From Watersipora subatra (lineage: Eukaryota; Bryozoa; Gymnolaemata; Cheilostomatida; Watersiporidae): 64,000 bases of DNA. The translations under genes and the position numbers were made by a program. The notes beneath the pieces were generated by a model, which saw only the letters and a list, made by a program, of their open reading frames with translations, was not told the origin of the DNA and ran no database searches. The DNA is taken from contig NC_088708.1 in the NCBI RefSeq assembly GCF_963576615.1, positions 6,262,001 through 6,326,000 on the forward strand, given 5' to 3'. Of this stretch, positions 20,285-45,480 are shown piece after piece; the first letter of the stretch is position 1, and the number at the start of each line of letters is the position of its first letter.

Positions 20285-20743
20285 ATGGCGCCTTACAGTG
20301 CCTCGCCTTGCGCGTTCACAACTCGAGTTGTACAACTCGAGTTGCACAACTCGAGTTGTGAACACGCAACGCGACTTTTCAAAAGTAAGGTGCAATATAT
20401 CGGTATTACGGTAGCATAACCGTAGATCTAGTTATATTAACAATGGTACATCAATAAGCACCCGTTAGCTAATAGAAACTAAACTGTATGTACTGTAAAA
20501 CAAGAGCTAATAGCGAATTATTAGAATTATACTGTGCCGAGTTTGCAACTCGAGTTGTACAACTCGAGTTGTGCAACTCGAGTTGTACAACTCGAGTTAT
20601 ATTTACAAACTCGAGTTGTACAACTCGAGTTGTGCAACTCGAGTTGTACAACTCGAGTTGCAAACTCGGCACAGTATAATTCTAATAATTCGCTATTAGC
20701 TTTAGTTTTACAGTACATACATATAGTCTGGTGGCCACATGGC
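20285..20743 (+). mobile_element. XhoI-palindrome element, copy with nested insertion
   Basis: The segment from ATGGCGCCTTACAGTGCCTC to AGTCTGGTGGCCACATGGCA matches 23942-24165 in inverted orientation at high identity. Near its left end are three copies of the self-complementary CAACTCGAGTTG. A further ~237-bp palindrome (20486-20722) interrupts it relative to the shorter copy. No coding capacity is visible. It is a non-autonomous element of unknown superfamily; I could not define a target duplication. Confidence 0.75.
20486..20722. repeat. Near-perfect 237-bp palindrome with eight CAACTCGAGTTG-type units
   Basis: The left arm, starting TATGTACTGTAAAAC, and the right arm, ending GTTTTACAGTACATA, are reverse complements for about 110 bp around a short centre near 20600. 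Inside each arm the palindromic 12-mer CAACTCGAGTTG or a close variant recurs at a 14-bp period (about four units per arm). The sequence can therefore fold both as one large hairpin and as many small ones. It is inserted in the element at 20285-20743. Confidence 0.85.
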
Positions 20744-23941: not shown

Positions 23942-24165
23942 TGCCCTGTGGCCACCAGACTAATAGTTTAATTTCTATTAGCTAACGGGTGCCTATCGAT
24001 ATACCATTGTTAATATAACCAGATCTACGGTTATGCTACCGTAATACCGATATATTGCACCTTACTTTTGAAAAGTCGTGTTGCGCGTTCACAACTCGAG
24101 TTGTGCAACTCGAGTTGATCAACTCGAGTTGCGAACACGCAACGCGAGGCACTGTAAGGCGCCAT
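23942..24165 (-). mobile_element. XhoI-palindrome element, short inverted copy
   Basis: This is a 224-bp inverted copy of 20285-20743 without the nested palindrome. It runs from TGCCCTGTGGCCACCAGACT to GCACTGTAAGGCGCCAT and has three CAACTCGAGTTG-type units near 24090-24132. Shared internal landmarks include GGTGCAATATATCGGTATTA (reverse strand) and the CCGTAGATCT segment. Confidence 0.75.
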
Positions 24166-28732: not shown

Positions 28733-31700
28733 ATGGCTACATTAAAAGATATTCTTCCAATCATACTTGTGCTAGTCGCAGGATTAGCTATGCACAGCTC
28801 TTTCCACAAGATTGAGGAGGGTAAGATGGCGGAGTGCATAGCTGAGCATTGATTTCATGTCCCTCATGCGCGTGTCTAGTGTGAATACTGGGCCCATTGA
28901 CATTTGTAATATAACATTCATTATCACGTTATTTTACCGAGTAGACACGTTAGCGCAATCAACAGAGTTCTTGCTGTTGTTTCACTGTGGCCCTCAAGCT
29001 AACCCATTCCTTCTCTTATTTTAGGTCATGTCGGAGTCTATTATCGTGTAAGTTATTATAGTTGTTGTTAATCTGTATGACCTTCAGACATTTCATGTCT
29101 GTTCTAAGGTCTCATACGCTATTTTTCTATACTAACATCTTTAAAATAGCATAAAATGTTCTTGCATGCCGAAGAGCTCATGCAACTATAGGCTGGCTTG
29201 ACTGTAAACTATAACTGGTTTTTTAGGGTGGAGCATTGCTTTCTTCTATCAGTGGCCCTGGCTATCACCTCATGATACCATTAGTTACAAACTTCCGTAG
29301 CGTGCAGACAACAATGCAGACTGATCAGATTAAGAATGTACCGTGTGGTACAAGGTAACTTCTATATTGTGTTCATGCTACAGTCTTCTTGAGTGTTCCT
29401 GTTTTACAGCGGTGCTTTACTTAATGCTTAGTTGAACAAAACAATGCTCATATCGCCGATCAGTTCGAGCGGAGAAAAATTAACACATTCTTTATAAAAC
29501 AAAACGCAGAATTAAAACCATAACTTTTCTAGCTTTGTATTTGTTTTAGGTTTTTCTGCCAACTACTAACTTGTGTCTTACTATATTATAAGCTACGACA
29601 GTGTTCATATTTCTTTCTATAGATATTATCACCATAACTGATAATATATTGCTTAGTGTCGTGTATCTTAGTATCTCGCATAGTATTTAACTTATTATAT
29701 TGTCTATTTATTCACATTCAGTTTGGGATGTTAACTGGACCAGGGAGTCAGTTGATTTCTCTCATCGCTAACTGCGCACTACTTAGGGCTGACTGCTGAC
29801 CCATGTCAGCTGACCCACTAAACCTACCGATGAATGATGTATGAGATTAGACGTTATTAAAGATGTGGTTGCGTCAAATTTGAGTTGATTTTAAAAGAAA
29901 GTATTGTTCTTTGTCTATCAGTTGATATGCTGTTTGTTGTGTTAGCCGATCTCATTGTCAAGATATTTTAAGCTTAAAATCGAAAAAATTGGTCGCGGTA
30001 AAAACGCTCAGGCCAAAAAAACTTGCCCAAAATGATGTAACGTGTGATACAACCTGTCTCTATCTCTCGTATTCACATCGGCTATTGTGATAAAAGTCTA
30101 GTCCTACGCGACTCTATTGGCATATATTTTATCTTGTATTTGTTGACTAGAATAAAATTTTAAATCCAGCTACAGATACATTATTACCAATGTCTCAAAT
30201 GCCTCAAACAAGAAAAATTAAAAAACTTGTCATATTAGCTTCTTCTAAATGCTGTGTAAACATCTTAGTACTGACTATCAATTTTACCGGTCTATGGTAA
30301 TTACGTTTGAGCAAACTACGTAGAATAAGGTCTTTGTATCGGCACAGTTTTGTCACTACCCACTCTAATGATATACAGCCCCCAAAAGTCCCGCCCACAT
30401 GATGCCTGTCGCCTATCCTGGGGGGGGGGCGGCAAGTACTAAACAATTCGTCGGACTATGCGAAAGTGCCTGTCCGTGCAGCTCTGATTGCACTTCATAA
30501 ATCCATCTATCAGACAAGATTTCAGCACAGGTGTCAGCGGGGCTATGATGTATTCAATGTTCTGCAAATCATGTTTTGCATTATCTTCAACAATATTATT
30601 TTATTATATAATTTTACATAGTTTCAGCTTATACAATAAGACAAATTCATCTGCTGCAGCACACATTCAAGTCTCTCTTTCCCATTTATGGCACTTTCCA
30701 CACTGACAAAGCTGCTTCGGCTGGTGGGACCACATAAACATCCTGTAATTAGTAAAACAAATGCAATAAATACGTGTATATGTCATTCATAGATATGTCA
30801 TTTTAACGCGTATCTACTGAAAGCTTTCAAATTGGGAGTTGGATAAATTGCGAGTGTAATTTTAAAAATGAATAAATGTTTAACAAAAGCATAAGTACGC
30901 CAAGCCAACAATTCGAAGCGTTGGTTCTGGAAGTTAAAGATGTGCATTGATCAATTGATTTTTTTCACTTTCTACAAGTGAGAAGTAAACATCTAAAGTC
31001 AAATCATAAATCAAATTTACTAGCTAAACTGCCAAAGAAAATTGAAGCAAATATAGCTAGGTGAAACGATAAAAAATTATAAAACGATGATTGGTGATAG
31101 CAAAAAAGTATAATTCTATTAATTAGTACATGTATTAATGAGTACTAAAATTATTACCTTTAGTATAATTATTCATCAATCTAAGCCATTGTATTGCTAG
31201 ATGCTATGGATTAAAAAGAAGCCGTCAAGAACTCACCGTGCATACGTATCTCGCACGCGCGCGCAGGAAATTACATTATAACCTCAAACAGGGAAATATA
31301 ATCTGAATGTAAACTCAACAGTATATCCTATAGGAGACTCAAAGTAAAAGATATAAATTTACCTCCATTCTCCTATCTTCCTCCGTAGCACTTTAACCAC
31401 TTGATGCACAGAAAACTCGGAGTCACTTTCGCAGTAACTTTGCAGTAATTTTTACAATTCTGTTGTTCGTCAATAAAATGTGTTGATCGAGTAATTCATT
31501 AAAGTAACGACGTTAATTAATTTAGTAAATATCGATGTCCATGCGATTTAATAATAGAGTAAAATCCCAAAATTTGAGATCACAGAGAACGCGTTTTACG
31601 AGTGATAACATTTATTACGACCTATATAAAGATTTTGCGCTGATGATTGGCTAATAAAGCGATCTTATATTTATCGCTCGTGGACTCTTTTCAGATGTAT

Positions 31701-34700
31701 CACTAGTAACGTCACGAATGAAGCACCTGTTGGAATCTGAGATTTTTAAAAGATGGCCTCATTCAAACGCATATATCTCTGGACAGGATTGATCTACAAA
31801 GACAAAAATGACATCAAATTGTAGCTGATGTTTTAGCCTTTTATTGGTCTTAATTTCATTAAATCGACCTTTTTGACGCAACCACATCTTTAAGTAAAGG
31901 TCAGATTGCATAAACAAATTGCATAAACTCAGTCAGGTAAACTCCAGACTTTGAATGACAATTTGTTTCTGCAAGTTGATTAGATGTCTTGAAATAGATT
32001 TTCATTAAATTTCTTAGTGATTAATGAACTAACCAGACATGCGTTGGCTCTTCGCAAGGTCACAGGGCAGCCTTAGTTTATTATATTAGAGCGATCAAAT
32101 GTTGGTTGTATCAATTATTCACCTCTATGTACATGCATAAACTATATCAATTATTCACCTCTATGTACATACATAAACTACATCAAATATTCACCTCTAT
32201 GTACATGCATAAAATACATCAAATATTCACCTCTATGTACATGCATAAACTACATCAATTATTCATCTCTATGTACATGCATAAACTACATCAATTATTC
32301 ATCTCTATGTACATGCATAAACTATATCAATTATTCATCTCTATGTACATGCATAAACTATATCAATTATTCATCTCTATGTACATGCATAAACTACATC
32401 AAATATTCACCTCTATGTACATGCATAAACTATATCAATTATTCATCTCTATGTACATGCATAAACTATATCAAATATTCATCTCTATGTACATGCATAA
32501 ACTATATCAATTATTCATCTCTATGTACATGCATAAACTATATCAATTATTCATCTCTATGTACATGCATAAACTACATCAAATATTCACCTCTATGTAC
32601 ATGCATAAACTACATCAAATATTCACCTCTTTGTACATGCATAAATTATATCAAATATTCATCTCTATGTACATGCATAAACTATATCAATTATTCATCT
32701 CTATGTACATGCATAAACTACATCAAATATTCACCTCTATGTACATGCATAAACTACATCAATTATTCATCTCTATGTACATGCATAAACTATATCAATT
32801 ATTCATCGCTATGTACATGCATAAACTACATCAATTATTCATCTCTATGTACATGCATAAACTACATCAAATATTCACCTCTTTGTACATGCATAAACTA
32901 CATCAAATATTCAGCTGTCTGTACATGCATAAACTACATCAAATATTCACCTCTTTGTACATGCATAAAATACATCAAATATTCATCTCTATGTACATGC
33001 ATAAACTACATCAAATATTCATCCCTATGTACATGCATAAACTATATCAATTATTCATCTCTATGTACATGCATAAACTACATCAATTATTCATCTCTAT
33101 GTACATGCATAAACTACATCAAATATTCACCTCTTTGTACATGCATAAACTACATCAAATATTCACCTCTATGTACATGCATAAACTACATCAAATATTC
33201 ATCTCTATGTACATGCATAAACTACATCAAATATTCACCTCTATGTACATGCATAAACTACATCAAATATTCATCTCTATGTACATGCATAAACTATATC
33301 AATTATTCATCTCTATGTACATGCATAAACTACATCAAATATTCACCTCTATGTACATGCATAAACTACATCAATTATTCATCTCTATGTACATGTATAA
33401 ACTACATCAAATATTCACCTCTATGTACATGCATAAACTACATCAAATATTCACCTCTTTGTACATGCATAAACTACATCAATTATTCATCTCTATGTAC
33501 ATGCATAAACTACATCAAATATTCACCTCTATGTACATGCATAAACTATATCAATTATTCATCTCTATGTACATGCATAAACTACATCAAATATTCATCT
33601 CTATGTACATGCATAAACTACATCAAATATTCACCTCTTTGTACATGCATAAACTACATCAATTATTCATCTCTATGTACATGCATAAACTACATCAAAT
33701 ATTCACCTCTATGTACATGCATAAACTATATCAATTATTCATCTCTATGTACATGCATAAACTACATCAAATATTCATCTCTATGTACATGCATAAACTA
33801 CATCAAATATTCATCTCTTTGTACATGCATAAACCATATCAATTATTCATCTCTATGTACATGCATAAACTACATCAAATATTCACCTCTATGTACATGC
33901 ATAAACTACATCAAATATTCACCTCTATGTACATGCATAAACTACATCAATTATTCATCTCTATGTACATGCATAAACTATATCAATTATTCATCGCTAT
34001 GTACATGCATAAACTACATCAATTATTCATCTCTATGTACATGCATAAACTACATCAAATATTCACCTCTTTGTACATGCATAAACTACATCAAATATTC
34101 AGCTGTCTGTACATGCATAAACTACATCAAATATTCACCTCTTTGTACATGCATAAAATACATCAAATATTCATCTCTATGTACATGCATAAACTACATC
34201 AAATATTCATCCCTATGTACATGCATAAACTATATCAATTATTCATCTCTATGTACATGCATAAACTACATCAATTATTCATCTCTATGTACATGCATAA
34301 ACTACATCAAATATTCACCTCTTTGTACATGCATAAACTACATCAAATATTCACCTCTATGTACATGCATAAACTACATCAAATATTCATCTCTATGTAC
34401 ATGCATAAACTACATCAAATATTCACCTCTATGTACATGCATAAACTACATCAAATATTCACCTCTTTGTACATGCATAAACTACATCAATTATTCATCT
34501 CTATGTACATGCATAAACTACATCAAATATTCACCTCTATGTACATGCATAAACTATATCAATTATTCATCTCTATGTACATGCATAAACTACATCAAAT
34601 ATTCATCTCTATGTACATGCATAAACTACATCAAATATTCACCTCTTTGTACATGCATAAACTACATCAATTATTCATCTCTATGTACATGCATAAACTA

Positions 34701-37700
34701 CATCAAATATTCACCTCTATGTACATGCATAAACTATATCAATTATTCATCTCTATGTACATGCATAAACTACATCAAATATTCATCTCTATGTACATGC
34801 ATAAACTACATCAAATATTCATCTCTTTGTACATGCATAAACTACATCAAATATTCATCTCTATGTACATGCATAAACTACATCAAATATTCACCTCTAT
34901 GTACATGCATAAAATACATCAAATATTCATCTCTTTGTACATGCATAAACTATATCAATTATTCATCTCTATGTACATGCATAAACTACATCAAATATTC
35001 ATCTCTATGTACATGCATAAACTACATCAAATATTCATCTCTATGTACATGCATAAACTATATCAATTATTCATCTCTATGTACATGCATAAACTACATC
35101 AAATATTCACCTCTTTGTACATGCATAAACTACATCAAATATTCACCTCTTTGTACATGCATAAACTATATCAATTATTCATCTCTATGTACATGCATAA
35201 ACTACATCAATTATTCATCTCTATGTACATGCATAAACTACATCAAATATTCATCTCTATGTACATGCATAAACTACATCAAATATTCACCTCTTTGTAC
35301 ATGCATAAACTACATCAAATATTCACCTCTTTGTACATGCATAAACTATATCAATTATTCATCTCTATGTACATGCATAAACTACATCAATTATTCATCT
35401 CTATGTACATGCATAAACTACATCAAATATTCATCTCTATGTACATGCATAAACTACATCAAATATTCATCTCTATGTACATGCATAAACTACATCAAAT
35501 ATTCACCTCTTTGTACATGCATAAACTACATCAATTATTCATCTCTATGTACATGCATAAACTACATCAAATATTCACCTCTATGTACATGCATAAACTA
35601 CATCAATTATTCATCTCTATGTACATGCATAAACTACATCAAATATTCACCTCTATGTACATGCATAAAATACATCAAATATTCATCTCTTTGTACATGC
35701 ATAAACTATATCAATTATTCATCTCTATGTACATGCATAAACTACATCAAATATTCATCTCTATGTACATGCATAAACTACATCAAATATTCATCTCTAT
35801 GTACATGCATAAACTATATCAATTATTCATCTCTATGTACATGCATAAACTACATCAAATATTCACCTCTATGTACATGCATAAAATACATCAAATATTC
35901 ATCTCTTTGTACATGCATAAACTATATCAATTATTCATCTCTATGTACATGCATAAACTACATCAAATATTCATCTCTATGTACATGCATAAACTACATC
36001 AAATATTCATCTCTATGTACATGCATAAACTATATCAATTATTCATCTCTATGTACATGCATAAACTACATCAAATATTCACCTCTTTGTACATGCATAA
36101 AATACATCAAATATTCATCTCTATGTACATGCATAAACTACATCAAATATTCATCTCTATGTACATGCATAAACTACATCAAATATTCACCTCTTTGTAC
36201 ATGCATAAACTACATCAATTATTCATCTCTATGTACATGCATAAACTACATCAAATATTCACCTCTATGTACATGCATAAACTACATCAATTATTCATCT
36301 CTATGTACATGCATAAACTACATCAATTATTCATCTCTATGTACATGCATAAACTACATCAAATATTCACCTCTATGTACATGCATAAAATACATCAAAT
36401 ATTCATCTCTTTGTACATGCATAAACTATATCAATTATTCATCTCTATGTACATGCATAAACTACATCAAATATTCATCTCTATGTACATGCATAAACTA
36501 CATCAAATATTCATCTCTATGTACATGCATAAACTATATCAATTATTCATCTCTATGTACATGCATAAACTACATCAAATATTCACCTCTTTGTACATGC
36601 ATAAAATACATCAAATATTCATCTCTATGTACATGCATAAACTACATCAAATATTCATCTCTATGTACATGCATAAACTACATCAAATATTCACCTCTTT
36701 GTACATGCATAAACTACATCAATTATTCATCTCTATGTACATGCATAAACTACATCAAATATTCACCTCTATGTACATGCATAAACTACATCAATTATTC
36801 ATCTCTATGTACATGCATAAACTACATCAAATATTCACCTCTATGTACATGCATAAACTATATCAATTATTCATCTCTATGTACATGCATAAACTACATC
36901 AAATATTCATCTCTATGTACATGCATAAACTACATCAAATATTCATCTCTATGTACATGCATAAACTACATCAAATATTCATCTCTATGTACATGCATAA
37001 ACTACATCAAATATTCATCTCTATGTACATGCATAAACTATATCAATTATTCATCTCTATGTACATGCATAAACTACATCAAATATTCACCTCTTTGTAC
37101 ATGCATAAAATACATCAAATATTCATCTCTATGTACATGCATAAACTACATCAAATATTCATCTCTATGTACATGCATAAACTACATCAAATATTCACCT
37201 CTTTGTACATGCATAAACTACATCAATTATTCATCTCTATGTACATGCATAAACTACATCAAATATTCACCTCTATGTACATACATAAACTACATCAAAT
37301 ATTCACCTCTATGTACATGCATAAACTATATCAATTATTCATCTCTATGTACATGCATAAACTACATCAAATATTCATCTCTATGTACATGCATAAACTA
37401 TATCAAATATTCATCTCTATGTACATGCATAAACTACATCAAATATTCATCTCTATGTACATGCATAAACTATATCAAATATTCACCTCTATGTACATGC
37501 ATAAACTACATCAAATATTCATCTCTATGTACATGCATAAACTACATCAAATATTCACCTCTATGTACATACATAAACTATATCAATTATTCACCTCTAT
37601 GTACATGCATAAACTACATCAAATATTCACCTCTATGTACATGCATAAACTACATCAAATATTCATCTCTATGTACATGCATAAACTATATCAATTATTC

Positions 37701-40700
37701 ATCTCTATGTACATGCATAAACTACATCAAATATTCACCTTTATGTACATGCATAAACTATATCAATTATTCATCTCTATGTACATGCATAAACTACATC
37801 AAATATTCACCTCTTTGTACATGCATAAAATAAATGAAATATTCAGCTGTCTGTATAAAGCATATCAAATATTCATCTACGGTATATGCATAAACTGTAT
37901 CAAATGTTCATCTATAGGTACATGCATAAACTGGTTCAAATGTTCATCTATAGGTACATGTACAAACGCTATCAATTGTTCATCTATGGTATATGCATAA
38001 ACTGTATCAAATACTCATCTACGGTATATGCATAAACTGTATCAAATGTTCATCTATAGGTACATGTACAAACGCTATCAAATGTTCATCTATGGTATAT
38101 GCATAAACTGTATCAAATACTCATCTACGGTATATGCATAAACTGTATCAAATGTTCATCTATAGATACATGTACAAACGCTATCAAATGTTTATCGATA
38201 AACTCGCTCCAATATATAAGTACAAGCAGTGTTTTAAAACTTGCGGTTCGGTATGCTAGCTGTTATGAGAACTTGCTAGCGCAGCATAGATAGCGAGTAG
38301 TGGATAACTGAACTAGTCTGCTAGCGTAGATATGGCTCCATTGTTATGCAGTGGTGGAGTGATGATCTACTTTGACCGTGTTGAAGTAGTGAACATTCTG
38401 CAGGCGGGCGCTGCCTATGCCATAGTGAAGAACTACACGGCTGACTATGACAAGACTCTCATCTACAATAAGATTCACCACGAACTCAACCAGTTCTGCA
38501 GTGTGCACACATTGCAGGAAGTCTACATTGATCTCTTCGGTCAGTCAGACATGCTAGATGCGCTTTATTCTCCAACACTAGCTTTAGACTTGTAACTTTC
38601 ATTAAACTCAACACCCACATATGTTAGTGCATAGTATTATTCTAGTCCTGCGATTGGTTTTTGACCTCAGTTTTCATGAACGCTGATGATTTTCATGTAG
38701 TTTCAGCATTTAGCTTCATATAAAAAGGGCTAAATAAAGAGATATGGCATATTATGAGGGCGATGCCTTGTTTTAAAGGTTGACTTCCAACAAAATTCAC
38801 ATTACCATTATTTAATATGAAAAGATTCACCGTGTCTTACTCTGTTGTGTTGTAGATGCAAAATGGATTCCCTTTCCGAAACGGCACATATGTGATGTAG
38901 TTGTGAGAGATGGTTTCTGTTTACACCTTCTTGCAACCTTATTCGTCGAAATATTTTCACAAATATACTTCACGCATTCAATAAAACTATGTCTATTGTT
39001 CTTACGCGTCTGTTTTATCGTGATTGTAATGCTGTCACTTTTAGCAGTGATATCTTATTACTTACCGTAAAAAATCGTTAAACCTTTTAACCTTAGCTCG
39101 AAGGAGTACATATCATTGTCTGATAATCATGACGAGCCTGTTGGTCACCTGTGATAATCGAAAAGTGCTGCAAAAATTATTTGCGAAGTATTGGGTCACA
39201 TGATCAGATTACGACTTGACGATTGAATAATGCCGAAACAAAACTGTAAAGTAGCGAGCATCTATATTTGATACGGGGTCTTCGGTGAAACCCGAAGTGT
39301 TTGTCATAAACTAGTACTACGGTAAGTTTTATATTGAGCTTTGTATTGGCCTTTCAATTCACGTGAGAACATACGTGACAAGACGATAACCAAATTTCGT
39401 GGTTACGTCATCGAAATAAAGAGATTCCAATCTATGGCGGCTTTTCGTTTTTGAACTTTTAAGAGCTTGTTATCACTTTTCCACATATTTGGCACTTACA
39501 ACACAACAGAGTAAGACATGGTGAATCTTTTGATACCAAATAACTGTAATGTGAATTTTGTTGCAAGTCAACCTTTAAGGTCTGATTGAGTGAGTGAGTT
39601 GTTTTTGTAGAAATATTAGGCTAAATTTTGGAAGTGCCTTGTTAGCATTATGGAAATTGATTTTTGCGTCGTAAGCTCAACTAATATCAAAAGCTCCAAA
39701 TAAATTATACCTTGACTTTTTTCCATTTACACCTTGCCCCTTTTCACTTAGTCTCGACTTCTAACATGTTTGTAATTTTATTATGGTTTCCTTGAATAAG
39801 ATGCATTTGTCATATCCATGTATGTCTAATTAAATGAGAAGTTCTTTTCTCATTGTACCCGCTACATGTTACCCGCTGTGTTATAGCTGTTACCATATTG
39901 TGTCTTGTTCAGTATATTATACCTGCTATACTATTTATGTTGTGTTATACTTGCTATATCATACCTGCTATATTTATACAGGTACACACATTTATAGATT
40001 TATACTTATGTATCTACCAGATTCTCCTTGCTTTATTATACCAGCTTTATTAACTTAGATAGGGTGTTCTTTATTTGATTCATTTACTTGTTGTGAGTTC
40101 TTCTACTATTACACAGATTTCTTTTATCAGACTACAAGGTTTCTCTTCTATATTGTGACTATAAAGAGTGTATATCTGCTGGTACCACAGGTAGCTGATG
40201 CCATGTTTGGTATCCTCATTTTACCTCTTCAAGTTAATTTATTAAGCTGTTTCTGTCTTCTGCAGATCAGATCGATGAGAATTTGAAGAAAGCCCTGCAG
40301 CAGGACTTGTATATGCTTGCTCCAGGTCTTATAGTGCAGGCAGTTCGAGTGACCAAACCAAAGATACCTGAAACTATTAGGAGAAACTATGAAGAGATGT
40401 AAGTGAAACTATGAAGAGATGTAAGTGAAACTATGAAGAGATGTAAGTGAAACTATGAAGAGATGTAAGTGAAACTATGAAGAGATGTAAGTGAAACTAT
40501 GAAGAGATGTAAGTGAAACTATGAAGAGATGTAAGTGAAACTATGAAGAGATGTAAGTGAAACTATGAAGAGATGTAAGTGAAACTATGAAGAGATGTAA
40601 GTTAAACTATGAAGAGATGTAAGTGAAACTATGAAGAGATGTAAGTGAAACTATGAAGAGATGTAAGTGAAACTATGAAGAGATGTAAGTGAAACTATGA

Positions 40701-43700
40701 AGAGATGTAAGTGAAACTATGAAGAGATGTAAGTGAAACTATGAAGAGATGTAAGTGAAACTATGAAGAGATGTAAGTGAAACTATGAAGAGATGTAAGT
40801 GAAACTATGAAGAGATGTAAGTGAAACTATGAAGAGATGTAAGTGAAACTATGAAGAGATGTAAATGAAACTATGAAGAGATGTAAGTGAAACTATGAAG
40901 AGATGTAAGTGAAACTATGAAGAGATGTAAGTGAAACCGTATCGTCTCACCTTCACTATTAAAGATGAATTTGCACCAAATTTTATCAAAAAGTATAGGT
41001 ATTTTTTGTGTGATAGTTTTGATGTTTGAGGTGATCTGACTGCTAGGATGTTTCTAGATTAAAATCTACAAAACTTGATCAGAGTTAAAACGGTCAGAGC
41101 AAGCCATTGTGTGATTTTGGCATCATAGTCGCAAAGAGTCCGACTGAACAGAGAATCGTAACTCTGCAACTTAAGCGTAATAGCCGATATCAACAATAGC
41201 TGATATCAACTATAGCAACGATAGCAACTAGTGACGTCATTTCGAATGTATTTTTCTTCTGAGCGTTTTAACCTCGATCAAGTTTTGTTGATTTTAATCC
41301 TGAAATATCCTGGTGGTCAGATCACCTCAAACATCAAAAACAAATTCAAATGCTAGAAAAATACTGATACTTTATGATAAAACATACTAAAGTTTGGTGT
41401 GTAAGTTCATCTTTTATGGCTGAACATTCAGGTGCTGGCTGTTTAACAGTGAATAGCTGCCCATCACAAGATGAAAGCAGATCGTTTAGCTATAAGCCAA
41501 TCGTTGAGCAGTAAATACAGGCTGGCTAATTTCTTTCGGTTCTTCACACAAAGATTGTTGACTCTTATCCTGTCACTGGCTAACTCATTCCTATTATTAG
41601 CCTGTGACAGCGCACTTTGCCTGGATTCTACAGTTACCTGTCTGATATGAAAATTAAATCGCTATTCACTTTCTGAAAAGCTGTTTTTGCAGCTTGTTCA
41701 CCATTTTATGGGTTTTGCGACTGGACCTTTGCACAAGGCGATCAGCGGAGCTGATGTGGTAGATAGATGATATTATCGTAACCTTTCTCCCATAATTTGT
41801 TCATGAACAGTAAAGGTTGATATTGATCTTCAGATTGGCTTGCTTGTTCATTTCATGTGGGAGTAAATAAGTGCATGGCAGCTATTTTGGCGTTGGTTTT
41901 CATTACAGCCCCCCAGGATTGTATTACTACCAATTTTATCTTATGATGATGAACTATAGGGTGCTAGCACGTACATGTGTTTCTCAGCCATTTGTTGGGT
42001 TATGTTTAGCTTCTTTTTACAGATACTATGATTGTAGCTTTAACATCTAGCTTATTTTTTCTTTGTCCTAATACAGTCATACCTCAGCATACGCGTGGTC
42101 CTACATGCGAGAAATGTGAGATACGAGCAAAATATCAAGCAAGTTTTTGCCTTGAGATACGAGACAAATTTGAGAAAGGAGTATACGAGCTAGTTCTGAA
42201 TGCGGCCGCTAGGTGGCCAAACATGCGAGGGGCCATTTTCGAGAACAGCATCGTTTGGCCTTTTTCGTCGCATCAGTTTGAAAAAGTTTAAAAAAAACTG
42301 GCTAAAAGTAATAGTGAAAGTGAGGCAAAAAGAAACCAGAAGTGGATGATGAAAATGAATACAAAATTATATTAAGTTTAGTGTAAGATTACGACTTATT
42401 TTTTAGTGTGTGGTTAGTAAGCTAAATTTATTTTAGATAAATTAAAAGTTTATGTTACATAGTGTCACAAAAGCTTAACGTGCCAAACGTGTTACTGTCA
42501 AGTCTCTCTCACACAACCGTTAGCCGTTATGTTTGTCTCAAAGGTAACAACTCTATACAGAACTGTACATAAAAATGTTACATTTGATTGCAGATCATAA
42601 CCACTAGATAGGGATGTGTTACTTTTTGAGTGTAGGTAGTGAATTGGGTCAGCGTAATATCCTGTTTTTAGATGTTTTTTTTAGAAGATGGCTATGGATT
42701 AATTTTTATTTAGTTATTTCATGTAGAAAATATTTCTTTAAAATACGAGAAAATTGACATACGAGCTCAGTCCCGGAATGCATTAAGCTTTTTTGTTGAG
42801 GTATGACTGCATATAATTATTCAACATTTGAGTAATTTTTGGGTTTATTAAGCATTTTATTCCGTAATCTTGGGTTACACAAAGTACATGTATATAATAT
42901 GACTGGTAGGTATCCTAGTTTACACATAATACATGTATATAATATAACTGATTGGTAGCAATTGAGCTGGTGGAAAACAACCATCGCTATAAGAAAGAGA
43001 TGCAATGTCTATTCACATTATTAAAAATAGCTTTCGTCTTTTTGTTACAAACTTAGTGTAGCTAGTGTACGAGAGACCCTCTAGCACTGAGACTCACATA
43101 TACATATGCTTGTACGAGAGACCCCCTAGCACTGAGACTCACATATACATGTGCTTGTACGAGAGACCCCTAGCACTGAGACTCACATATATATGTGCTT
43201 CAGCTTAGTGTAGCTAGTGTACGAGAGACCCTCTAGCACTGAGACTCACATATACATGTGCTTCAAAAATGTTCAGCACCCTGTGTTTAATGATACACAC
43301 AGAACTGTAGGAAGCAACTGATTGCTTGTCACACCTTTCTCTCCGCCGCCAACCCTTTACTTCTTTTGTCACAGGGAACAGGAAAAGACAAAGTTGCTTA
43401 TAGCTGTGCAAAGGCAAAAGGTTGTTGAGAAGGAGGCAGAGACTGAGAGGAAGAGATCCATCATAGGTAATCTACATACTAATATATTTGCTATATACTG
43501 ATTGAGTGTCGCGTTAGCAATAACTGCATAGAATATAGCTCTAGAACTAGTGTATTTACTGCACCAACCTCTCTTAGCTAGCATTCAATGATGCATCTTG
43601 AGTTCTTGGTGAATAGTACATCTTAGTGGCTGGTAGGAAGTGAGAAATTACTTTATTGGCTGCCAAAAATGAGGCATGCATGTAATTGGTTGTTGCAAAG

Positions 43701-45480
43701 TGAGGAAGCATTCTATTAGTTGTTGAAGAACTAGTAAGCTTCTTGTTAGTCCTTGAATGATCTGTAAACATTATAATTGGTTGTTGAAAGAGGCACAAAC
43801 ACAGCAGCAAGTAGCAAATATCACCTGGACACAGAATATCGAACAGAAGGAAGCTCAAAGGACCATTTCGGAAATTGAAGGTATGGATTCTATTGCTTTA
43901 GGTGTCTGTTAAACCTTTGCTACCATGTTATGAGATTATTTATACAATACCAAATTAATTTTCTTAAAGGATTGTTTGGTTGTTTGTCCTCATTTTTAGC
44001 AGTGGGGAGTTGTCTTCTTTATCCTCCCTGAGTAGTGGAAAACCATTAATATCAGATGTAGTGCAAAAATGTATATGTATGAGATTGCATATAAAATGCT
44101 TACCACACGTACTAAAGAAGTTTCCACTCATTAATCTAGTTATAACTAATGCTGTGTTGCGTATGCTTACGTATTTAAAAATAATACACAACTTTTTACT
44201 TCTTTAATATCTTTTACAAAAAAGGAAATATTTTATTATTAGATCACTATAGAAAAACATTATTTTTTCTTGAGTCAAGACGTTTCGTCATTTTTTTCTT
44301 TGGGTAAGACTTGTTTTCAAGTTTTGAGTACCTTCCCTAGGAACATGTTTATTGGCAGCTGTTTCTGTTGTTTTTGATAATGGTAAAGGATTTCATATAT
44401 CAATATAGAAGAGTGTTTGGCTTCTATGACCTATAAAAACCTGGTTGTGAATAAGTGGGAATATGCAGGGTTCGGGACAAAATTTCCCGAGGTCAAGCCA
44501 TTACAAAATAAGATAGATATTTGTATATGCGATGGCCTTTCTCTAAAGCTGGCACCATTGGTCAGCAAGCTGTCATTGGTATACTCCCCGTCCAAAACAG
44601 TCTGCGTAGCGATACAATTTAGGCTGCTGGAATGACAAATCGGACCCTTGCTATAGATAGCTACTGGTTCACCCAACTCATTTGGTAAAGTGTATGGCTC
44701 AATAGCCTGTGGTTTTTGAGTTACAAAAAATGAGGAGAATGGTCTCACATGTGCTGTATATGAGGAATGGCTGGCACTGATAGCAAGCACGGTACAGCTC
44801 GTTGCAAAATTAATTTTACACGTTCATTCTCATTTATTTAGTTTATTGCGTGTTCCAATTCCGAGGCAACTTATACGATCGTTATTGGGCTGTTTCAATG
44901 GGAGTAATAACTGTATTGTTCTGGTTGACGTGTTTACATTTTCTGCATGAACCCTGTCAAGAACTATCGTCTCTTTTTTGCACATGAATGTTATGACTAT
45001 TATTACTTGATCAGATAAAGCTCACCTAGCCAAGGAGAAGGCCAAGACGGATGCTGAGTATTATAAGACAATGAAGGAGGCTGAGGCAAATAAGGTGAAT
45101 CAATTTGTCTCATTATTTACCCAGCTGAGCTTATGATGTTAGAGATGTAACCACAGCGTATTTTAACATTGGATGACAACACACGTATACTATAAATATC
45201 CAGTTTTTATTGAACTATTACAAACATAGAATATTTCTAGATGTAAATTGAAAGAGTAGCTCATAGCTGTAATTCGGTCAGATAGCAACTAATACGCTGG
45301 TTCTTACAGCTCAAGTTCACCAAAGAGTACTTGGAATACGTAAGAGTCCAGGCAATCGCTTCCAACACCAAGATGTATTTTGGTGATAGCATTCCAACTA
45401 TGTTTGCTGGCTCTACAATGACAGGAGCTGGAACAACAGCTGCCTCCACAGTCTCAACTGACCAAAGCGAGGAAAAATAG
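28733..45480 (+). CDS. ERLIN: Erlin, ER lipid-raft SPFH protein, nine coding exons
   Basis: Erlins form large SPFH-domain assemblies on the ER membrane that bind activated IP3 receptors for degradation and restrain sterol signalling. Exons: 28733-28820, 29025-29047, 29227-29354, 38352-38539, 40266-40398, 43375-43466, 43791-43880, 45015-45094, 45310-45480. All phases agree and give 993 nt, 330 residues, close to human ERLIN1/2. Residues 5-24 are a hydrophobic membrane anchor; then come [50 protein letters not shown] (Asn107 a glycosylation sequon), [51 protein letters not shown] and [16 protein letters not shown]. The start is the first ATG of a typical erlin N terminus. Intron 3 (9 kb) and intron 5 hold the large arrays described separately. 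One or two paralogues exist in animals; which this is cannot be told. Confidence 0.96.
29857..31893. mobile_element. 2-kb TTAA-ended element in ERLIN intron 3
   Basis: TTAAAGATGTGGTTGCGTCA at 29857 is repeated in inverted form at the right end (ending TTTAA at 31893). The ends share the layout TTAAAG..TTGC..CAAA with the foldback family at 14086, 15959 and 38773. The stretch ending near 31860 (AGCCTTTTATTGG, then TTAATTTCA) also matches the interior of copies 2 and 3. No transposase frame is open. It contains the short TIR fragment at 30366-30427. I regard it as a long non-autonomous or decayed relative of that family. Confidence 0.65.
30366..30427. mobile_element. Fragment of the CAATGATATACAGC transposon
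   Basis: AATGATATACAGCCCCC followed by CCCGCCCACATGATG and CGCCTATCCTGGGGGG matches the terminal repeats of the element at 51097-51912. The left-end motif and the inner part of the right end are directly adjacent, as if the body had been deleted. Confidence 0.6.
32109..37835 (+). repeat. 36-bp satellite, about 159 copies, in ERLIN intron 3
   Basis: The 36-bp unit (TACATCAAATATTCACCTC, then TATGTACATGCATAAAC) is repeated about 159 times with no visible change of period. Variant positions recur in combinations: TATATCAATTA or TACATCAAATA, CATC or CACC, TATG or TTTG. The AAAATACA variant recurs at 35667, 36387 and 37107 (720 bp = 20 units) and at 35883 and 36603. A rarer pair, TCATCGCT, recurs at 32803 and 33991 (1188 bp = 33 units). 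Because 36 is divisible by three, one frame stays open for 1964 codons (dodecapeptide [12 protein letters not shown]). The common variants all change amino acids (Tyr/His, Leu/Ile, Ile/Thr, Met/Leu), which argues against a selected protein. The array lies wholly inside a 9-kb intron. Confidence 0.95.
37836..38198 (+). repeat. Degenerate tail of the 36-bp array
   Basis: Beyond the regular array the unit decays into forms such as GTATATGCATAAACTGTATC and GTACATGTACAAACGCTATC, with indels that break the common frame. The pattern fits an older array edge no longer homogenised by unequal exchange. It ends about 150 bp before ERLIN exon 4. Confidence 0.85.
38773..39578 (+). mobile_element. TTAA-ended foldback element, copy 3
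   Basis: It starts TTAAAGGTTGACTTCC and ends GCAAGTCAACCTTTAA. The 806-bp body runs in the same direction as copy 2, sharing TCGAAGGAGTACATATCAT, GAGCCTGTTGGTCACCTGTG and GTTTGTCATAAACTAGT. It lies in ERLIN intron 4. No coding frame is present. Confidence 0.85.
40399..40938 (+). repeat. 25-copy tandem array of the ERLIN exon 5 splice donor
   Basis: Exon 5 of ERLIN ends AACTATGAAGAGAT at 40398. From 40399 a 22-bp unit, GTAAGT plus GAAACTATGAAGAGAT, is repeated 24 times and followed by a 25th start at 40927. The unit spans the exon-intron junction, so each copy recreates the last 16 exon bases and a consensus donor. GT positions fall every 22 bp from 40399 to 40927. Only two donors differ: GTAAGTT at 40597 and GTAAATG at 40861. 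Using any donor after the first would add ATG TAA at once and end the protein at residue 187. Confidence 0.97.
40959..41415. mobile_element. TIR element next to the donor array
   Basis: TAAAGATGAATTTGCACC at the left is mirrored at the right end (AAGTTCATCTTTTA). The inverted arms run for about 115 bp and include GATGTTTGAGGTGATCTGAC and its near complement. The 455-bp body has no frame. The left end reads TTAAAGATG...TTGCACCAAA, again like the TTAA families; the right TTAA is mutated. It starts about 20 bp after the splice-donor array in ERLIN intron 5. Confidence 0.7.
42074..42809. mobile_element. Tc1/mariner-like non-autonomous element
   Basis: CAGTCATACCTCAGCATACG at 42074 and its complement ending GAGGTATGACTG at 42809 form terminal inverted repeats. 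Sub-terminal GATACGAG-type motifs follow. The left flank is TA; the right flank is CA, a probable mutated TA. The 736-bp body contains only short frames. It lies in ERLIN intron 5. Confidence 0.75.
43065..43264. repeat. Four-copy tandem repeat in ERLIN intron 5
   Basis: The unit TGTACGAGAGACCCYCTAGC, then ACTGAGACTCACATATACA, occurs at 43065, 43111, 43157 and 43219. The spacing is 46, 46 and 62 bp. The fourth copy repeats the TTAGTGTAGCTAG lead-in of the first, so the block was duplicated as a whole. It ends about 110 bp before the exon 6 acceptor. Confidence 0.88.
43625..43800 (+). repeat. Decayed 30-bp minisatellite running into the ERLIN exon 7 acceptor
   Basis: Related motifs TTGGCTGCC, TTGGTTGTTG, TTAGTTGTTG and TTGGTTGTTG recur at about 43655, 43685, 43715, 43745 and 43776, a 30-bp period. 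The last unit provides the 3' splice site: ATTGGTTGTTGAAAG precedes exon 7 (AGGCACAAAC). There is no long pyrimidine tract. The acceptor is fixed by frame and by homology of exon 7 to the erlin coiled-coil region. Confidence 0.65.

What the first reader, a model, noticed from the sequence alone, without database searches (positions are those of the whole stretch)
40382..40938. Minisatellite that multiplies a 5' splice site 25-fold
The 22-bp unit spans the exon 5/intron 5 junction of ERLIN, so every copy recreates the last 16 exon bases and a GTAAGT donor. Twenty-three of the 25 donors share GTAAGTG. Only the first keeps the frame; every later one inserts ATG TAA directly, giving a 187-residue SPFH-only protein or an NMD target. 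The array could act as a decoy field, as a dense U1 snRNP landing strip that protects the long intron from premature cleavage, or as a tunable switch whose output depends on copy number. The structure is seen; the roles are inference.
Basis: partly seen in the sequence, partly recalled or inferred. Interest (0 to 1): 0.9.

Follow-up and report, generated by a model that had tools for sequence, protein, structure and literature searches.

The report
Tandem repeat multiplying a splice donor
In a bryozoan's ERLIN gene, a short DNA repeat has copied the end of one exon and its splice signal 25 times; only the first signal gives a full-length protein, and close counterparts of this layout are already known in human genes such as ABCA7 and CBS.

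Summary
Window 40383-40937 holds 25.2 copies of a 22-bp unit (16 exonic bases + GTAAGT); 23 of 25 are identical. The gene is ERLIN of the bryozoan Watersipora subatra, with no second copy found. Nine exons join into an intact 330-aa frame, identical to NCBI's protein, only from donor 1; any later donor includes an in-frame TAA and gives 187 aa.

No close copy was found elsewhere; the array is nearly unmutated and flanked by a GAAAC repeat that could have seeded it. A rough base rate suggests that a junction-spanning array needs no special cause in this minisatellite-rich genome.

The kind is known: human ABCA7 (25 bp x 23.7), CBS (31 bp, 16-21 copies), IFI6. In ABCA7 the first GT is the canonical donor; using the next adds one unit and an NMD-sensitive stop.

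Best reading: a recent neutral or slightly costly minisatellite; donor 1 makes ERLIN, later donors leak into NMD. The U1-shield idea is weakly supported. A copy-number dosage effect remains possible and testable. No RNA was examined.

The parts
28733..28820 (+). ERLIN exon 1 (coding part)
   Evidence: joined protein identical to P0003
29025..29047 (+). ERLIN exon 2 (23 nt)
29227..29354 (+). ERLIN exon 3
38352..38539 (+). ERLIN exon 4
40266..40398 (+). ERLIN exon 5 (133 nt), ends ...GAGAT at donor 1
   Evidence: conserved junction
40383..40937 (+). 22-bp minisatellite, 25 units plus GAAAC; unit = last 16 exon bases + GTAAGT
40399..40404 (+). donor 1 (GTAAGT), the only donor that restores the ERLIN frame
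   Evidence: protein P0003
40400..40402 (+). in-frame TAA met by transcripts that use a later donor or retain the intron
   Evidence: sequence; 187-aa products computed for donors 2, 3, 4 and 25
40421..40932 (+). donors 2-25 at 22-nt spacing (copy 22 is GTAAAT, the others GTAAGT)
40383..40387 (+). GAAAC, 5' member of the short direct repeat that could have seeded the first duplication
   Evidence: the role is inference
40933..40937 (+). GAAAC, 3' member of the same short direct repeat, followed by unrelated intron sequence
   Evidence: the role is inference
43375..43466 (+). ERLIN exon 6 (92 nt; skipping it would shift the frame)
43791..43880 (+). ERLIN exon 7
45015..45094 (+). ERLIN exon 8
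45310..45480 (+). ERLIN exon 9 with stop codon

Best explanation
This is a recently expanded minisatellite seeded on an exon/intron junction. Slippage between two GAAAC words 22 bp apart would have duplicated the last 16 bases of exon 5 together with the donor GTAAGT, and the duplication then expanded to 25 near-identical copies (inferred). The spliceosome still joins exon 5 to exon 6 mainly from donor 1, which makes the ERLIN protein of a gene with no second copy found; some use of later copies extends the exon by multiples of 22 nt into an in-frame TAA and is cleared by NMD (inferred, by analogy with ABCA7). The array has no dedicated function; it is neutral or mildly costly.
For: Array and junction. 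No close copy elsewhere in the 784-Mb genome: of 40 listed matches one is the array itself and the other 39 are 66-76% identical (only the best candidates are scored), so it probably arose in place. Seed repeat: 5' ...GGA-GAAACTATG... and 3' GAAACCGTATCG. Recent: 2 substitutions in 550 bp. Gene intact: 330-aa frame; 8 of 8 protein matches in the genome lie in this locus; strong match to Erlin-1 and Erlin-2 chains. NCBI's protein for this species is 100% identical to the donor-1 product. Precedent: in ABCA7 the first GT of a 25-bp x 23.7 array is the canonical donor, and an alternative isoform that retains one unit is out of frame; cycloheximide raised the premature-stop transcripts. Base rate: about 150 arrays of >=5 copies, or about 17 of >=20 copies (95% range 0.4-93), would be expected to cover a donor genome-wide if placed at random (only 100 kb sampled).
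Against: No RNA was seen, so donor-1 use rests on the NCBI protein and on conservation; I could not see whether reads support that model. Most donors in the array share their sequence on both sides, so nothing local singles out donor 1. Competition work favours the donor nearest the 3' splice site when SRSF1 sits upstream of or between competing donors (passages of PMC5585400), and the unit holds a purine-rich GAAGAG (motif reading recalled); that predicts later donors. In ABCA7, alternative transcripts around the array (the three events together) exceeded the canonical one in 90% of BA10 brain cases, so leakage may be large.
Confidence: 0.72

Rival explanations
1. Dosage rheostat: the more copies, the larger the share of ERLIN transcripts diverted to later donors (NMD) or to skipping of exon 6, so that array length sets ERLIN output and is visible to selection.
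For: A review states that more repeats of the CBS 31-bp boundary VNTR decrease CBS activity. In ABCA7, longer arrays increase skipping of the next exon. Here later donors and exon 6 skipping give premature stops.
Against: No RNA or population data here. In ABCA7 retention of a repeat unit did not depend on array length. 2 substitutions in 550 bp, one of them in a donor, leave no signal of selection on the donors.
Confidence: 0.13
2. Later donors win: most transcripts use copies nearer the 3' splice site, the allele is a strong hypomorph, and ERLIN comes mainly from the other haplotype or from rare donor-1 splicing.
For: Most copies are locally identical, and SRSF1 can favour the intron-proximal donor of a competing pair. 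The genome note's primary k-mer completeness of 69.65% against 98.05% combined suggests very divergent haplotypes (my inference).
Against: No second ERLIN was found and the frame is intact; in ABCA7 the first donor is the canonical one; the NCBI protein is the donor-1 product.
Confidence: 0.07
3. U1 landing strip (telescripting): the dense U1 sites protect intron 5 from premature cleavage and polyadenylation.
For: 24 GTAAGT in 25 copies at 22-nt spacing; an ATTAAA lies at 40958, 21 nt past the array's end.
Against: Intron 5 is 2,976 nt with 0 AATAAA; introns 3 and 4, which have 6 and 4, lack such an array. 5 ATTAAA is near what A+T content would give (about 3, my hand estimate, which also makes 0 AATAAA unremarkable). 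Outside the array intron 5 already has 10 GT sites that pair with U1 at least as well (duplexes were not forced into register with the GT).
Confidence: 0.04
4. Assembly artefact: array length or presence is wrong.
For: Tandem arrays are a known source of assembly error; raw reads were not examined.
Against: The assembly comes from PacBio HiFi reads at about 39-fold, primary QV 63.2; a 555-bp array is far shorter than the mean read implied by 13.30 Gb in 2.20 million reads (about 6 kb, my division).
Confidence: 0.02

Closest known systems
ABCA7 intron 18 VNTR (human; Acta Neuropathol 2018, PMC5954066, passages read)
   Same: 25-bp unit, 23.7 copies in the reference, starts at the exon 18 donor; the first GT is the canonical donor; using the next one retains one unit, out of frame, premature stop; premature-stop transcripts rose with cycloheximide.
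   Different: The passages put the array in intron 18 with GT as its first two bases, whereas here the array begins 16 bases inside the exon. ABCA7 has RNA and length data (about 12 to 427 units, exon 19 skipping); none were examined here. Its units vary slightly; here 23 of 25 are identical.
CBS 31-bp VNTR c.1444_1467+7(16_21) (human; PMC2630376 and PMC5188458, passages read; Lievers 2001 seen only as a reference)
   Same: The unit spans the exon 13/intron 13 boundary (by its name, 24 exonic + 7 intronic bases), in 16-21 copies.
   Different: Polymorphic in people, and more repeats are reported to decrease CBS activity; in the bryozoan length variation and effect are unknown. I saw no statement on which CBS copy is used as donor.
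IFI6 / 6-16 minisatellite (human; Turri, Cuin and Porter 1995, title seen in reference lists; a passage on it in PMC4526556)
   Same: [quoted passage not shown] two downstream repeat units are used as donors, giving three mRNA species.
   Different: The unit is 12 bp (recalled), so extra units keep the frame; here each later donor adds a stop.
Internal tandem repeats at exon-intron boundaries of human duplicated genes (PMC2812944, passages read)
   Same: Variable repeats at exon-intron boundaries that alter splicing.
   Different: Found in recently duplicated primate genes; no second copy of this ERLIN was found.

Membership tests
Exon/intron-boundary minisatellites that multiply a splice donor (ABCA7, CBS, IFI6) | Repeat unit contains the authentic 5' splice site of the host exon | tested here: met
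   Unit = 16 exonic bases + GTAAGT; donor 1 is the junction that gives the conserved protein
Exon/intron-boundary minisatellites that multiply a splice donor (ABCA7, CBS, IFI6) | Array runs from the exon end into the intron | tested here: met
   40383-40937; exon 5 ends at 40398
Exon/intron-boundary minisatellites that multiply a splice donor (ABCA7, CBS, IFI6) | First copy is the main donor in mRNA | tested here: inconclusive
   NCBI protein equals the donor-1 product; no RNA examined
Exon/intron-boundary minisatellites that multiply a splice donor (ABCA7, CBS, IFI6) | At least one further repeat copy is used as a donor in mRNA | not testable with these tools
   needs RNA reads
Exon/intron-boundary minisatellites that multiply a splice donor (ABCA7, CBS, IFI6) | Copy number varies between individuals | not testable with these tools
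   one haplotype held
ERLIN (SPFH family) | Band_7/SPFH domain and ERLIN-specific match over the length | tested here: met
   PF01145 residues 26-208, 108.6 bits; Erlin-2 chain E 5.5e-141 over residues 19-308
Protein-coding tandem repeat | Open frame through the array | tested here: not met
   stops recur in all six frames (first 70 residues of each frame printed)
Dispersed or transposed repeat | Close copies elsewhere in the genome | tested here: not met
   the 39 other listed matches are 66-76% identical (only best candidates are scored)
U1 telescripting element | Shields intronic polyadenylation signals by U1 binding | tested here: inconclusive
   0 AATAAA, 5 ATTAAA in intron 5; U1 occupancy not testable here

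The most novel reading that the evidence does not exclude
ERLIN output in Watersipora is set by array length: 24 decoy donors with nearly the same local sequence compete with the one productive donor, so each slippage mutation changes the fraction of transcripts sent to NMD, a heritable and fast-mutating expression dial on a gene with no second copy. Because the donors are locally alike, junction counts along the array would give a direct natural measurement of how position alone decides 5' splice site choice.
Probability: 0.12. Interest if true: 0.6.

Novelty: new member of a known kind. Interest (0 to 1): 0.36.

Why it matters
It adds an invertebrate case to the human examples found here and is an unusually clean one: near-identical donors, one productive and the rest leading to a stop, in a gene with no second copy found. 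Reading the RNA-seq that the genome project made would measure how position, rather than local sequence, decides donor choice. It also points to minisatellite-rich genomes as places to look for boundary arrays.

Tried and rejected
Coding repeat: rejected, stops in all six frames. Dispersed repeat: rejected, no close copy among the matches scored. A second ERLIN copy that would relieve this one: none found, 8 of 8 matches lie in this locus; a Band_7 family search listed 6 other places and none of this gene's exons, so that search alone is not sensitive to split exons. RNA structure in the array: weak, -24.1 kcal/mol over 550 nt (no shuffles run). A genome-wide count of donor arrays: three GTAAGT within short distance occur 21,304 (forward) + 25,772 (reverse) times against 7,120 + 7,403 for the reversed control pattern, but matches overlap within long arrays and only the first places (C1 up to about 482 kb) were listed, so I draw no conclusion on arrays at splice sites. 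A stricter pattern (AGGTAAGT three times) did not complete. Base rate: 10 stretches of 10 kb gave 12 rows of period >=10 and >=5 copies, merged by hand to 9 arrays (8 if every overlap is merged), one of them with >=20 copies and period 15-40 (the window's own 5 rows were left out of this count); 100 kb is a small sample and I chose the positions by hand. No alternate haplotype, related-species DNA or RNA was available. Of ten answered paper searches only two bear on whether this array is in print: the species name (4 papers listed) and bryozoan/Erlin with repeat terms (10 of 68 listed, none of the 10 holding 'bryozoan'); neither listing showed it. The library holds only openly licensed papers. 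Turri 1995 and Lievers 2001 were not held, nor PMC343271.
Full report
OBSERVATION. Tandem Repeats Finder reports 40383-40937, period 22, 25.2 copies, 99% matches. Read unit by unit, 23 of 25 copies are GAAACTATGAAGAGATGTAAGT; copy 11 begins with T, so the donor before it reads GTAAGTT, and copy 22 reads GTAAAT. A partial unit (GAAAC) follows. GTAAGT occurs 12 times in the 56,499 bases of the window outside its five largest arrays (+ strand), so about 0.12 would be expected in 557 bases; 24 are present.

ORGANISM AND GENE. The joined protein is 100% identical over 330 aa to NCBI's erlin-1-like of Watersipora subatra, whose contig length, 79,350,317, is that of the window's contig C1; the genome note gives 783.70 Mb and 11 chromosomal scaffolds (abstract, passages). 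The gene has nine coding exons with eight GT-AG introns and a 993-nt open CDS. It matches Erlin-2 chains in the PDB at E 5.5e-141 and Pfam Band_7 at residues 26-208. No second ERLIN was found in the genome: 8 of 8 matches fall in this locus.

JUNCTION. Exon 5 ends ...GAG AT and exon 6 begins GGAACAGGAA after cacag. The join reads [15 protein letters not shown] and aligns without gaps in the ten ERLINs that I aligned, this one and nine others, out of 120 hits listed and 3,313 found. So donor 1 (GT at 40399) is the authentic site. Splicing computed at donors 2, 3, 4 and 25 gives ATG TAA at once and 187 aa, with the stop 280 to 786 nt upstream of the last exon junction, beyond the usual 50-55 nt NMD distance (recalled); the other later donors must do the same, since TAA 40400-40402 is in every such exon. 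The truncated product ends inside, not after, the Pfam SPFH domain.

ORIGIN. A search of the whole genome with the array lists 40 matches: itself and 39 others at 66-76% identity (only best candidates are scored), so the unit most likely comes from the host gene. The array is bounded by GAAAC at the start of unit 1 and GAAAC after unit 25, followed by unrelated sequence. Collapsed to one unit, the locus would be an ordinary intron start with GAAAC repeated 22 bp apart; slippage or recombination between such short direct repeats is a published idea of minisatellite birth (passage in PMC2820488). With two substitutions in 550 bp the expansion or homogenisation is recent. These steps are inferred, not seen.

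HOW SURPRISING. Minisatellites are common here: the window itself gives 17 TRF rows, including 168.9 copies of a 36-mer in ERLIN intron 3. Ten 10-kb stretches that I picked elsewhere gave 12 rows with period >=10 and >=5 copies, merged by hand to 9 arrays. With about 76,000 introns (16,835 genes, 5.52 exons per transcript), random placement would put about 150 arrays of >=5 copies (95% range 69-286), or about 17 of >=20 copies (0.4-93, from a single array), over a donor. This ignores selection and rests on 100 kb, so it only suggests that one such array needs no special cause.

HOW IT LIKELY WORKS. Shown: one productive donor followed by 24 near-identical copies, in an intact gene with no second copy found. 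Inferred: donor 1 is used most of the time, and later donors leak into NMD. The support is the NCBI protein and, above all, ABCA7: a 25-bp unit, 23.7 copies, the first GT being the canonical exon 18 donor; an alternative isoform keeps one unit and is out of frame; cycloheximide raised the premature-stop transcripts; array length did not change that isoform but did increase skipping of the next exon (passages of PMC5954066). By analogy exon 6 skipping deserves a look here; it would shift the frame, giving 215 aa and a stop 82 nt before the last junction.

AGAINST MY READING. Most donors share their local sequence, so choice must rest on position or on elements in exon 5; competition work describes SRSF1 favouring the intron-proximal donor (passages of PMC5585400). 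If that rule won here, the last donors would be used and the allele would be nearly dead. [quoted passage not shown] No RNA was available to decide.

THE U1 SHIELD. Intron 5 is 2,976 nt; introns 3 and 4 carry 6 and 4 AATAAA and no such array, while intron 5 has 0 AATAAA and 5 ATTAAA. Pairing of the array donor with U1 is -6.2 kcal/mol, within the gene's range (-5.2 to -8.9), and intron 5 outside the array has 10 GT sites that pair at least as well (duplexes not forced into register). Nothing calls for a shield, though U1 may well bind.

KNOWN KIND. Besides ABCA7: the CBS 31-bp VNTR, named c.1444_1467+7(16_21) (PMC2630376), lies at the exon 13/intron 13 boundary, and a review says more repeats decrease CBS activity (PMC5188458). 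IFI6 uses two downstream repeat units as donors, giving three mRNAs (PMC4526556, citing Turri et al. 1995, which I did not read). This array is therefore a new member of a known kind, outside the human cases found, with near-identical copies and, unlike IFI6, a stop at each later donor.

VERDICT. Interest is moderate, because the locus is a neat natural test of positional donor choice and because RNA-seq that could read it was made for the genome project.

Noticed in passing
32110-38179: 6-kb array of about 169 copies of a 36-bp unit fills most of ERLIN intron 3; because 36 is a multiple of three, it leaves mechanical open frames of up to 1,990 aa.
   Followed up: no
41017-41339: Inverted repeat with 82-nt arms, 87% complementary, 159 nt apart, in intron 5 about 80 nt after the array; looks like a MITE-type element (label recalled).
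   Followed up: no
43066-43263: Three copies of a 45-bp unit (43066-43200) and a further copy up to 43263 in intron 5, just upstream of the exon 6 acceptor.
   Followed up: no
20318-20668 and 24092-24131: Tandem 14-mers that are near-palindromic (CGAGTTGTACAACT and kin) at separate places in the window.
   Followed up: no
whole genome G000: Three GTAAGT within short spacing occur about three times as often as the reversed pattern (47,076 against 14,523 matches); whether some of these arrays sit on splice junctions is unknown.
   Followed up: partly
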